This document shows, one piece after another, positions 1,292-39,664 of a stretch of DNA of 41,821 nucleotides. The stretch covers positions 1-41,821 of the forward strand of contig JAJZWB010000014.1 of the NCBI GenBank assembly GCA_021846845.1, given 5' to 3'. Under the pieces are notes generated by a model. It saw only the letters and a program-made list of their open reading frames with translations, was not told where the DNA came from and made no database searches. The position numbers were made by a program, and so were the translations under genes. Numbering within the stretch: position 1 is the stretch's first letter; the number at the start of each line of letters is the position of its first letter. Origin of the DNA: Actinomycetes bacterium (lineage in GTDB: Bacteria; Actinomycetota; Thermoleophilia; Solirubrobacterales; Solirubrobacteraceae).

Positions 1292-1332
1292 CGACCCTTC
1301 CGGCGGGGCTCATGAGGCGCGCGGACACGGCT

Positions 1333-1416
1333 GATGAGGGCGCGCCCGGCCGGCCGATGAGGGCACGACCGGCCGGCCGATGAGGGCGCGCCCGGCCGGC
1401 CGATGAGGGCGCCCGG
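1333..1416. repeat. Tandem repeat, 23-bp unit, 3.6 copies
   Basis: Units begin at 1333, 1356, 1379 and 1402 (partial). Units 1 and 3 are identical; unit 2 differs at two positions. Each starts GATGAGGGC and ends CCGGCCGGCC, so each carries a GGCCGGCC palindrome. The array lies between the permease stop and the 3' end of the convergent membrane-protein gene. Confidence 0.85.
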
Positions 1417-27958: not shown

Positions 27959-28630
27959 CTAATCCTCCAGGAGGAAGTCGAACACCGCGTAGGCGAGCAG
28001 TGCGAACACAAGATCATAAAGCGCCAGGATCAGAAGCCACCGTCCGGAAGGGGACGAGGCGCCGTGGACCGACAGCAGCGGGCCGGCCGCGCGCGCGGTC
28101 GCGATCAGCGCGGGGATCAGCAGCGGCAGCCCGATGATCGGCCCGATCAGGTCCCGGGCGCGGGTGTGGACCGCGATCGCCGACACGAGCGTGCCGATCA
28201 CCGACAGCCCCAGGTTGACGAGCAGCAGGATCAGGATCATCCCCGGCAGCGCGGGGCCGAGCGGCGGACCGAGCAGCAGCAGCGCGAACGCCGGCAGCGC
28301 GATCACCTCCAGCACCACCAGGAACGCGAACATCGCCGCGGACTTGGCCACCAGCATCGCCGAGCGGTCCACCGGAGCCAGCAGGAAGGCGTCGAAGCCG
28401 CCCTGCTCGCGCTCGGAGACGAACAGGCGGTTGATCCCGAGCATCGCCGAGAACAGCAGCGAGACCGTCAGCACGCCGGCCGCGAGCTGTCCGTCGATCG
28501 CGTCGCGATCGAGGCCGAAGTGGAAGATCACGAAGGTCACCAGCGCCAGCAGGACCATCGCCGGCACCGTCTCAAGCGTGCGCATCTCCAGCCGCAGGTC
28601 CTTGCCCAGCAGGACCATCGCGGTTCTCAT
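27959..28630 (-). CDS. ccmB: Haem exporter permease CcmB
   Basis: A 223-aa ABC permease with six helices. It begins LLGKDLRLEMRTLETVPAMVLLALVTFVIFHF, the CcmB N-terminus (K-D-L-R-x-E-x-R). It continues with SLLFSAMLGINRLFVSEREQGGFDAFLLAPVDRSAMLVAKS (the ER-E-G-D-A-LLAP coupling region contacting the ATPase) and a C-terminal PLLIPALIATARA segment. With CcmA it forms the transporter that drives haem release from CcmC/CcmE. ATG 28630 overlaps the ccmA stop (ATGA). The stop TAG lies next to the ccmC SD region. Confidence 0.94.
   Translation of the reverse strand: MRTAMVLLGKDLRLEMRTLETVPAMVLLALVTFVIFHFGLDRDAIDGQLAAGVLTVSLLFSAMLGINRLFVSEREQGGFDAFLLAPVDRSAMLVAKSAAMFAFLVVLEVIALPAFALLLLGPPLGPALPGMILILLLVNLGLSVIGTLVSAIAVHTRARDLIGPIIGLPLLIPALIATARAAGPLLSVHGASSPSGRWLLILALYDLVFALLAYAVFDFLLED
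27964..27968 (-). promoter_or_regulatory. SD sequence before ccmC
   Basis: GGAGG on the minus strand, within the last codons of ccmB. The codon 7 nt downstream in the ccmC frame is GTT (27956), not a standard start. It shows that initiation near here is intended. Confidence 0.45.
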
Positions 28631-29322
28631 GCGTACAGCTCCCGCAGCCGCTCGTCGCCCAGCCCGGCAGGCTCGCCGCAGTACGCCGGACGCCCGTCGC
28701 GCAGCGCCAGCACCAGGTCGGCCTCGGCCAGAGCCGCCTGAGGGTCATGGCTGGTGAGCACCCGCGTGGCGCCGCTGGCGCGGCCGATCAGGGGCTCCAC
28801 CAGCTCGCCCGCGGCCGGGTCCAGGTTGGCCCGCGGCTCGTCCAGCAGCAGCACGCTCGGCCGGTGCAGCACCGCGCGGCAGACCGCAAGCCGCTGGACC
28901 ATCCCGCGGGAGAGCAGGCGCACCGGCTCATCGGCGCGGCGCTCCATCCGAACCGCCACGAGCACCTGTTCGACGCGCTCGGGCGCCACCCGGTGGAGCC
29001 GCGCGTGGTAGAGGAGGTTCTCCCGTCCCGTCAGCTCCCGGTACAGCAGCGGCTCATGGCTGAGAAGACCGACGCTCGCTCGGACCGCGAACGCCCGCCG
29101 CGGGAGCGGCTCCCCGAGCACCCGCGCCTCGCCGGCATGCGGTCGCAGCAGGGCGGCGAGGATCCGCAGCAGCGTCGACTTGCCGGCGCCGTTGCGGCCG
29201 AGCACCGCGAGCGTCGCCCCGGCCGGAACCGAGACGGTCACGTCGCGCAGCGCGGCCCGCTCCCCGAACAGGCGGGTCAGGCCGCGCAGCTCGATGGCCG
29301 GGGATGCGGGGTCCACGCTCAT
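28627..29322 (-). CDS. ccmA: Haem exporter ATPase CcmA
   Basis: A 231-aa ABC ATPase. Walker A GRNGAGKST follows VSVPAGATLAVL; the Q-loop region is SVGLLSHEPLLYRELTGRENLLYHARLH, with His-Glu in the place of the usual Gln. The signature LSRGMVQRLAVCRAVLH has R-G-M instead of S-G-G, as in known CcmA proteins. Walker B is VLLLDEPRANLD, and the switch His is in VLTSHD. The start ATG 29322 overlaps the stop of an upstream mini-ORF made by duplication of the first 44 bp of this gene. It belongs to the run mogA-ccmABCD-hemAC. Confidence 0.94.
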   Translation of the reverse strand: MSVDPASPAIELRGLTRLFGERAALRDVTVSVPAGATLAVLGRNGAGKSTLLRILAALLRPHAGEARVLGEPLPRRAFAVRASVGLLSHEPLLYRELTGRENLLYHARLHRVAPERVEQVLVAVRMERRADEPVRLLSRGMVQRLAVCRAVLHRPSVLLLDEPRANLDPAAGELVEPLIGRASGATRVLTSHDPQAALAEADLVLALRDGRPAYCGEPAGLGDERLRELYA

Positions 29323-29366
29323 GCGCCGCGCAGCTCGATGGCCGGGGATGCGGGGTCCGCGCTCAT
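29319..29366 (-). CDS. Mini-ORF B, duplicated ccmA start (15 aa)
   Basis: ATG 29366 opens MSADPASPAIELRGA and stops at TGA 29319-29321, which overlaps the ccmA ATG (ATGA). It is an out-of-frame copy of the ccmA N-terminus. It may act only to couple translation to ccmA; the peptide itself is probably unimportant. Confidence 0.35.
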   Translation of the reverse strand: MSADPASPAIELRGA

Positions 29367-29410
29367 GCGCCGCGCAGCTCGATGGCCGGGGATGCGGGGT
29401 CCGCGCTCAT
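29323..29410. repeat. Two exact 44-bp copies of the ccmA 5' end placed upstream of ccmA
   Basis: Copies at 29323-29366 and 29367-29410 are identical to each other and differ by one base (GTG to GCG in codon 3) from ccmA codons 1-14. On the left the array runs into ccmA itself. On the right it stops 12 bp before the mogA stop, in a stretch (GGCCACTGAGCTGCGCGGC) very like the repeat's GGCCATCGAGCTGCGCGGC, which probably served as the duplication site. Confidence 0.93.
29363..29410 (-). CDS. Mini-ORF A, duplicated ccmA start (15 aa)
   Basis: ATG 29410, 12 nt after the mogA stop, opens the same MSADPASPAIELRGA peptide and stops overlapping the ATG of mini-ORF B (ATGA). Together they form a chain of stop/start overlaps from mogA to ccmA. 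Confidence 0.35.
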   Translation of the reverse strand: MSADPASPAIELRGA

Positions 29411-29422
29411 GCGCCGCGCAGC

Positions 29423-29911
29423 TCAGTGGCCGGGGGTGCGGACCCCGCGCTCGCGCTGGAGCGTCTCCACGACGTGGCGCAGCGTCGGCGCGATCACGGG
29501 GAAGAGCTCGCCGATCGCCTTCGGGTTGCCAGGGAAGTTGACGATCAGCGAGCGCCCGGCGATCCCCGAGACGCCCCGGGTCAGGATCCCCATCGGCGTG
29601 TGCCTGGTGGACTCCGCGCGCATCGCCTCCGCGAAGCCGGGGGCGTGGCGGTCGATCACCGCCAGCGTCGCCTCCGGAGTCACGTCATCGTCGGTGAAGC
29701 CGGTCCCGCCGGTCGTGAAGATCAGCGGCTCGCCGGCGGCCGCCTGGCGGCGCAGCCACGCCTCGATCGCGTCCCTGTCGTCGGGGACCACGTCACGAGC
29801 GACGACCTCGGCTCCCGCCGCCACGCAGTGCTCGGCGAGCACGGCGCCCGAGCGGTCCTCGGTCTCGCCGGCGGCCACGGAGGTCGAGACGGTCAGGATG
29901 GCGGCGCGCAT
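29423..29911 (-). CDS. MogA/MoaB-like molybdopterin adenylyltransferase
   Basis: A 162-aa protein of the MoCF-binding fold. It starts RAAILTVSTSVAAGETEDRSG, has FTTGGTGFTDDDVTPEATLAVID with GGTG at 68-71 and the catalytic Asp74, and ends GRSLIVNFPGNPKAIGELFPVIAPTLRHVVETL (P-G-N-P-K-A motif). It would adenylate molybdopterin before metal insertion. It is the first gene of the run leading to ccmA, and MoaC lies nearby at 30846. ATG 29911 has TATCCT 8 nt upstream and no SD, suggesting a leaderless transcript. The MogA versus MoaB assignment is open. Confidence 0.88.
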   Translation of the reverse strand: MRAAILTVSTSVAAGETEDRSGAVLAEHCVAAGAEVVARDVVPDDRDAIEAWLRRQAAAGEPLIFTTGGTGFTDDDVTPEATLAVIDRHAPGFAEAMRAESTRHTPMGILTRGVSGIAGRSLIVNFPGNPKAIGELFPVIAPTLRHVVETLQRERGVRTPGH

Positions 29912-37038: not shown

Positions 37039-37052
37039 GCCCGCGTGCCCGC

Positions 37053-37241
37053 CATCTCCCCTTCCGGGCGCGCCATCGCCCCTTCCGGGCGCGCCATCGC
37101 CCCTTCCGGGCGCGCCATCGCCCCTTCCGGGCGCGCCATCGCCCCTTCCGGGCGCGCCATCGCCCCTTCCGGGCGCGCCATCGCCCCTTCCGGGCGCGCC
37201 ATCGCCCCTTCCGGGTGCGCCGTCGGCCCCTTCCGGCCCGC
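37053..37241. repeat. Tandem repeat, 21-bp unit, nine copies
   Basis: Units start every 21 bp from 37053. Six (37074-37199) are identical (CATCGCCCC then TTCCGGGCGCGC). The first has one change, the eighth one change, and the ninth is degenerate. Because 21 is a multiple of 3, the array is open in several frames on both strands, giving spurious reading frames. It lies between the pncB hairpin and the FtsH-like gene. Confidence 0.95.
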
Positions 37242-39314: not shown

Positions 39315-39532
39315 GCGACGAAAAGCCACAGAAGGTCACGATCGGCTTCGCGGGCGGCCCGGTGCTCTCGGCGCGCGTGGGTCCATCCGCGCTGGCCGGG
39401 CTGCGGCAGGCGCTTGGCGGCAGCGGCTGGCACGACCTGGAGGCCGAGGACGCGACGATCGCGCTGCAGCTGGAGAAGGTCGTCTACGTGCTGGTCGACT
39501 CCGATTCGCACCGGGTGGGGTTCGGCGGCTGA
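39311..39532 (+). CDS. Small protein of unknown function coupled to the epimerase gene (73 aa)
   Basis: A 73-aa, probably beta-rich protein: KVTIGFAGGPVLSARVGPSALAGLRQALGGSGW, then EDATIALQLEKVVYVLVDSDSHRVGFGG. It has no Cys, membrane helix or recognised motif. Its ATG overlaps the epimerase stop (ATGA), so the two are translationally coupled. The stretch of alternating hydrophobic residues before a conserved-looking HRVGF end suggests a small barrel or sheet; no function is assigned. Its last codons and stop are included in the downstream 59-bp repeat. Confidence 0.78.
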   Translation: MSDEKPQKVTIGFAGGPVLSARVGPSALAGLRQALGGSGWHDLEAEDATIALQLEKVVYVLVDSDSHRVGFGG

Positions 39533-39664
39533 CGCCGTCACGCCCCGTCGGCCGCGCGGGCCGGCCGCACCAGACCATGTCCGGCAGCTGACGCCGTCAC
39601 GCCCCGTCGACCGCGCGGGCCGGCCGCACCAGACCATGTCCGGCAGCTGACGCCGTCACGCCCC
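39523..39664. repeat. Tandem repeat, 59-bp unit, 2.4 copies, starting inside a gene
   Basis: Copies at 39523 and 39582 differ at two positions; a partial third spans 39641-39664. The unit begins with the last codons and TGA of the 73-aa gene (CGGCGGCTGACGCC), so the gene's end has been duplicated downstream. A further GGCTGACGCCG echo occurs at about 39674. Confidence 0.92.

What the first reader, a model, noticed from the sequence alone, without database searches (positions are those of the whole stretch)
29319..29425. Self-copied gene start: tandem mini-ORFs with ATGA overlaps in front of ccmA
Two exact 44-bp copies of the first codons of ccmA stand between mogA and ccmA. Each copy has its own ATG and encodes MSADPASPAIELRGA. 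Because 44 is not a multiple of 3, each runs into a TGA that overlaps the next ATG (ATGA). The result is a relay mogA stop - ORF A - ORF B - ccmA. Any number of copies keeps ccmA intact while adding one more termination/reinitiation step, so copy number could tune haem-exporter output. The near-identity of the mogA end (GGCCACTGAGCTGCGCGGC) to the unit suggests how it arose.
Basis: partly seen in the sequence, partly recalled or inferred. Interest (0 to 1): 0.66.

Follow-up and report, generated by a model that had tools for sequence, protein, structure and literature searches.

The report
Duplicated gene junction relaying ribosomes
A 44-base stretch where two neighbouring genes meet has been copied in tandem, leaving two tiny reading frames that probably hand the ribosome on from the first gene to the second; the same arrangement recurs at other gene junctions in this genome, and it resembles the MIRU repeats of mycobacteria but is home-made at each site.

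Summary
On the minus strand, mogA (stop 29425-29423), ORF A, ORF B and ccmA (start 29322) lie in series. A and B are exact 44-bp copies linked by ATGA overlaps. The mogA 3' end is a fourth, diverged copy (36/44), so what was copied is the gene junction, not just a gene start. In most relatives mogA and ccmA overlap out of frame. Duplication pulled the pair apart: unit 1 kept the mogA stop and lost the ccmA start; ccmA kept the start and lost the mogA stop.

The pattern recurs. In 1.13 Mb of this genome, all six arrays spanning a same-strand stop/start junction leave an unbroken mini-ORF chain between the two genes (mreD-PBP2, hutU-hutI and others); another species has one before hemA. Simple -4 cases have periods 44, 59, 41, 32 and 53, all 2 mod 3, the only phase giving a relay. 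Best reading: slippage duplication filtered by selection to keep termination-reinitiation coupling. The architecture is like mycobacterial MIRUs, but each unit is locally derived. Tuning of haem export by copy number is untested and seems unlikely. No strain comparison or expression data were available.

The parts
29423..29911 (-). mogA/moaB-like gene (MoCF_biosynth domain), upstream gene of the junction
29411..29454 (-). Unit 1: diverged copy that holds the mogA 3' end and stop; codon aligned with the ancestral ccmA GTG start reads GGG
29411..29422 (-). 12-nt gap between mogA stop and ORF A start (first relay step)
29363..29410 (-). ORF A (MSADPASPAIELRGA*), unit 2
29319..29366 (-). ORF B (MSADPASPAIELRGA*), unit 3, ATGA overlap with ORF A and with ccmA
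29279..29322 (-). Unit 4: true ccmA start; keeps the ancestral GTG-GAC (codons 3-4), has lost the ancestral mogA stop (ATTGAG to ATCGAG)
28627..29322 (-). ccmA-like haem exporter ATP-binding protein (best ccmA model just under its curated cut-off; ccmB and ccmC follow)
29281..29452 (-). Whole tandem array, 44 bp x 3.9, as TRF reports it

Best explanation
The array is a tandem duplication, probably by replication slippage, of the overlapping mogA/ccmA junction. Shown: relatives, outgroup families included, carry an out-of-frame overlap at this junction, so the overlap is ancestral. Shown: unit 1 kept only the mogA stop and the last unit only the ccmA start, so two jobs of one stretch were split between copies. 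Shown: the middle copies are open reading frames that start at one ATGA and end at the next because the period is 2 mod 3. Inferred: ribosomes finishing mogA restart at ORF A (12 nt on), then at ORF B and then at ccmA, so ccmA stays coupled to mogA although its start now lies 100 nt past the mogA stop. Inferred: selection keeps those junction duplications whose phase leaves such a chain, in the same way that it keeps multiples of three inside genes.
For: Relatives carry the overlap, including outgroup families; the window and G011, its nearest relative, form a supported pair that has lost it. Six of six junction-spanning arrays in 1.13 Mb of the genome give complete chains, and a 53-bp array before hemA in another species does too, even across a 1-bp deletion, through an ATGAGTGA -8 overlap. 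For hutU-hutI the two nearest relatives have a single -4 overlap and no repeat. L009 shows an independent 64-bp duplication of the mogA/ccmA junction itself, whose mini-ORF repeats the original 26-nt start-to-stop geometry exactly. Simulated duplication of 109 real -4 junctions gives a relay in 6171 of 6213 cases at period 2 mod 3 and never otherwise. Observed simple -4 periods 44, 59, 41, 32, 53 are all 2 mod 3 (Fisher p = 0.003 against intergenic arrays). In native E. coli pairs a +14 nt gap cuts reinitiation by 40-80% and +38 nt nearly abolishes it (PMC10666635), so a 100-nt gap without the relay should uncouple ccmA. No promoter-like or terminator-like site lies in the junction.
Against: No expression data. 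The sample is small: counting the two irregular arrays (L157, period 31; L242, period 76) as failures gives 5 of 7, p = 0.03 (Fisher) or 0.045 (binomial), and the window case itself prompted the test. NTGA chains also occur in non-coding arrays by chance. The first step in the window is a +12 gap without an evident Shine-Dalgarno motif, which is only moderately favourable. ccmA could be initiated independently, perhaps at the old GTG (29316).
Confidence: 0.66

Rival explanations
1. Neutral minisatellite: slippage in a repeat-prone genome happened to hit a gene junction. The mini-ORFs are by-products, ccmA initiates on its own at ATG 29322 or GTG 29316, and the phase is chance.
For: The genome has 8.3 arrays per 100 kb, most in non-coding DNA or in frame inside genes; NTGA chains arise by chance in non-coding arrays; A and B are too alike to show selection.
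Against: All junction-spanning arrays found keep a complete chain, and all five simple -4 ones have the relay phase; ccmA has no evident ribosome-binding site in the sequence.
Confidence: 0.25
2. Copy-number tuner: unit number varies between cells or strains and sets ccmA output through the number of reinitiation steps.
For: Exact copies imply recent or ongoing expansion; any number of units at 44 bp keeps ccmA intact, as the sequence shows.
Against: No copy-number comparison within the species was possible; relatives have one copy, or in L009 a different duplication; -4 overlaps are described as tightly coupled, so extra steps may cost little; the same pattern occurs at unrelated junctions, which argues against a haem-specific control.
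Confidence: 0.06
3. Assembly artefact: the exact copies or their number are wrong in this short-contig metagenome assembly.
For: 219-contig draft genome; exact repeats are error-prone; no reads were available.
Against: The longest self-repeat at a 44-bp shift is about 62 bases by my own count, within reach of ordinary reads; the outer units are marked by unique substitutions; assemblers tend to collapse, not add, repeats.
Confidence: 0.03

Closest known systems
Mycobacterial interspersed repetitive units (MIRU; Supply et al. 1997, as cited in PMC12548453 and described in PMC4473831)
   Same: Repeat units between co-directional genes; small ORFs in the direction of the genes whose ends overlap the neighbouring ORFs, with -4 spacing; read as a way to add DNA with minimal effect on gene expression.
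   Different: MIRUs are a repeat family dispersed through the genome and thought to be mobile; here each array has its own unit, copied from the local junction.
Translational coupling by termination-reinitiation at ATGA/GTGA overlaps (PMC6728339, PMC10666635)
   Same: The links A-B and B-ccmA are standard -4 overlaps.
   Different: Serial relay through two 15-codon ORFs with no evident product; the first link is +12.
Bacterial minisatellites / VNTR loci
   Same: Tandem units of tens of bases with near-identical copies.
   Different: The unit spans a stop and a start, and the period is 2 mod 3.
Short upstream ORFs and bicistronic-design leaders that deliver ribosomes (PMC12548453)
   Same: A short ORF delivers ribosomes to an overlapping gene.
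   Different: Natural, duplicated, and fed by an upstream gene instead of its own strong start.

Membership tests
MIRU | Small ORF in the direction of the genes whose ends overlap the contiguous ORFs | tested here: inconclusive
   Met on the downstream side (ATGA to ccmA); on the upstream side the window has a +12 gap. Both sides overlap in L140, L143 and L161.
MIRU | One homologous sequence dispersed at many loci | tested here: not met
   No good matches between the units of different loci in the 1.13 Mb sampled; one weak 30-nt match in the whole genome.
MIRU | Mobility, insertion at start codons | tested here: not met
   The unit is made of the ancestral mogA/ccmA overlap, so this is local duplication, not insertion.
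Termination-reinitiation coupled genes | Stop and start overlap or lie within a few nt | tested here: met
   -4 for A-B and B-ccmA, +12 for mogA-A.
Termination-reinitiation coupled genes | Translation of the downstream gene depends on the upstream one | not testable with these tools
   Needs reporters or ribosome profiling.
Minisatellite / VNTR | Tandem near-identical units of 10-100 bp | tested here: met
   TRF: 44 bp x 3.9, 94%.
Minisatellite / VNTR | Copy number varies among strains | not testable with these tools
   One genome per species held; no reads.

The most novel reading that the evidence does not exclude
A general rule of genome evolution: tandem duplication of overlapping gene junctions is tolerated mainly when the period has the phase that leaves a continuous stop-start relay (2 mod 3 for -4 overlaps). 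Translational coupling would then act as a reading-frame-like constraint on DNA between genes, and families like MIRU would be specialised cases of it.
Probability: 0.4. Interest if true: 0.75.

Novelty: new variant of a known kind. Interest (0 to 1): 0.56.

Why it matters
If the phase rule holds, genomes contain natural experiments showing that termination-reinitiation coupling is under selection, measurable from sequence alone. It would help separate local reinitiation from long-range scanning in non-model bacteria, explain how overlapping genes can come apart without losing coupling, and show how MIRU-like architecture can arise from scratch. It also warns that tiny ORFs between operon genes may be ribosome relays and not peptide genes.

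Tried and rejected
Promoter or terminator inside the array: none found. Special RNA structure: fold no stronger than shuffles (z 0.35). Dispersed family: no good matches between units; the one other genome hit (C38) is a 30-nt GC-rich partial match at the mogA end. Same 44-bp duplication in relatives: not found; only G005/L009 shows a clear junction duplication (64 bp), while G011/L084 has lost the overlap without a significant repeat. Literature searches for tandem duplication of overlapping gene junctions returned nothing relevant. The gene calls in the survey come from a home-made codon-usage caller, so starts are approximate.

Full report
Observation. On the minus strand the order is mogA (29911-29423), 12 nt, ORF A (29410-29363), ORF B (29366-29319), ccmA (29322-28627), ccmB, ccmC. 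ORFs A and B read MSADPASPAIELRGA* and end in a TGA that overlaps the next ATG. TRF scores 3.9 copies of 44 bp with no indels. The four units differ as follows: A and B identical; ccmA one base different inside the shared part (GTG for GCG); unit 1, which holds the mogA 3' end, 8 of 44 different.

Origin. tblastn of mogA and ccmA against loci from Solirubrobacterales shows that in most of those where the two genes are neighbours they overlap out of frame...GGCCAT[TGA]GCTGCG is mogA G-H-stop and at the same time ccmA A-I-E-L, with ccmA often starting at a GTG about 23 nt before the end of the mogA stop. This is found in other families too, so it is ancestral. In the window, unit 1 keeps the mogA stop (CACTGA) but the codon aligned with the old GTG start reads GGG; the ccmA unit keeps GTG-GAC (codons 3-4) but ATTGAG has become ATCGAG, which removes the mogA stop. 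One stretch that did two jobs became two stretches that each do one. G011, the nearest relative (a clade with the window at 99/89 support), has also lost the overlap (stop, 5 nt, ATG), so separation may predate the recent expansion of A and B. G005/L009 shows an independent duplication at the same junction: 64 bp, 38-bp copies with 3 mismatches, and a mini-ORF that overlaps mogA and ccmA with the original geometry, 26 nt from start to stop both times.

Context. The genome carries many tandem arrays: 94 in 1.13 Mb sampled (8.3 per 100 kb), against 0.5 to 1.3 in three congeners and 5.4 to 5.9 in two others. Inside genes 33 of 34 periods are multiples of three; intergenic ones are mixed (25, 15 and 15 for 0, 1 and 2 mod 3). 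The raw material is therefore ordinary slippage.

Recurrence. I asked what arrays look like when they contain both a stop and the next same-strand start. In the sampled genome there are six (for L157 the upstream stop lies 23 bases outside the array), and every one leaves an unbroken chain of linked ORFs from the upstream to the downstream gene: the window (44 bp); mreD-PBP2 (59 bp; L140 10748-10875); hutU-hutI (41 bp; L143 17327-17454); an unnamed gene and a TudS-like gene (32 bp; L161 10541-10606); a gene before a diaminopropionate ammonia-lyase-like gene (irregular, period 76; L242 1225-1371); and a 31-bp array at L157 152-268 whose mini-ORFs mostly span two units. All links are NTGA overlaps except the 12-nt first link of the window. 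Among 1.39 Mb of relatives one further case turned up, a 53-bp array before hemA in another species, where one unit has lost a base and the chain continues through an ATGAGTGA -8 overlap. For hutU-hutI the two nearest relatives have a plain -4 overlap with no repeat.

The phase argument. If an NTGA overlap is duplicated with period n, the mini-ORF is n+4 nt long, so it ends on the next NTGA only if n is 2 mod 3. Simulation on the 109 real -4 junctions confirms this: 6171 of 6213 duplications at 2 mod 3 make a relay and none at 0 or 1 mod 3. The simple -4 cases have periods 44, 59, 41, 32 and 53, all 2 mod 3 (Fisher p = 0.003 against intergenic arrays), and L009, whose long overlap needs 1 mod 3, has 64. 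Counting the two irregular arrays as failures weakens this to p = 0.03 (Fisher) or 0.045 (binomial), and the window case prompted the search, so I call it suggestive and not proven. Chains also appear in non-coding arrays by chance.

Mechanism. In native E. coli gene pairs reinitiation falls by 40-80% at +14 nt and is almost abolished at +38 nt, and the last 15 nt of the upstream gene suffice (PMC10666635). The ccmA start is 100 nt past the mogA stop; without the mini-ORFs coupling should be lost, with them the gaps are +12, -4 and -4. No promoter-like or terminator-like site and no unusual fold is present, and I see no Shine-Dalgarno motif before ccmA. I therefore infer that the mini-ORFs act as a ribosome relay whose peptide products are incidental. 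Copy-number tuning of haem export is possible but has no support here.

Known relatives. The architecture matches MIRUs of mycobacteria, whose small ORFs overlap their neighbours and which are thought to insert at start codons with -4 spacing and minimal effect on expression (PMC12548453; PMC4473831). The present units fail the defining test of a dispersed homologous family and are locally derived, so this works like a MIRU but is not one. Hence: new variant of a known kind.

Noticed in passing
L063:3354-3520: 53-bp x 3.2 array in front of hemA in another Solirubrobacterales MAG forms a three-step mini-ORF relay; one unit has lost a base and the chain is kept by an ATGAGTGA (-8) overlap.
   Followed up: yes
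L140:10748-10875 and L143:17327-17454 (same genome as the window): Mini-ORF relays between mreD and PBP2 (59-bp unit) and between hutU and hutI (41-bp unit).
   Followed up: yes
whole genome G000 (1.13 Mb sampled): Tandem-array density is about six to sixteen times that of three congeners; the cause (repair, habitat, assembly) is unknown.
   Followed up: partly
window 37050-37236: 21-bp unit repeated 8.9 times, 97% matches, between a nicotinate phosphoribosyltransferase-like ORF and an FtsH-like ORF (names by eye from the translations, not tested).
   Followed up: no
window 39523-39664: 59-bp x 2.4 array, 97% matches, that starts at the end of a predicted ORF; its minus strand also has NTGA-linked ORFs although the stretch looks non-coding.
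   Followed up: no
window 1328-1412: 23-bp x 3.7 array with tandem ATGA mini-ORFs (MRARPAGR) in apparently non-coding DNA, a useful chance control.
   Followed up: partly
L004/L087 and L097, mogA 3' end: mogA C-terminus lengthened before the conserved overlap in these relatives (in L004 a weak, non-significant repeat at a 27-nt shift), so the overlap with ccmA is kept: possibly an in-frame counterpart of the window's duplication.
   Followed up: partly
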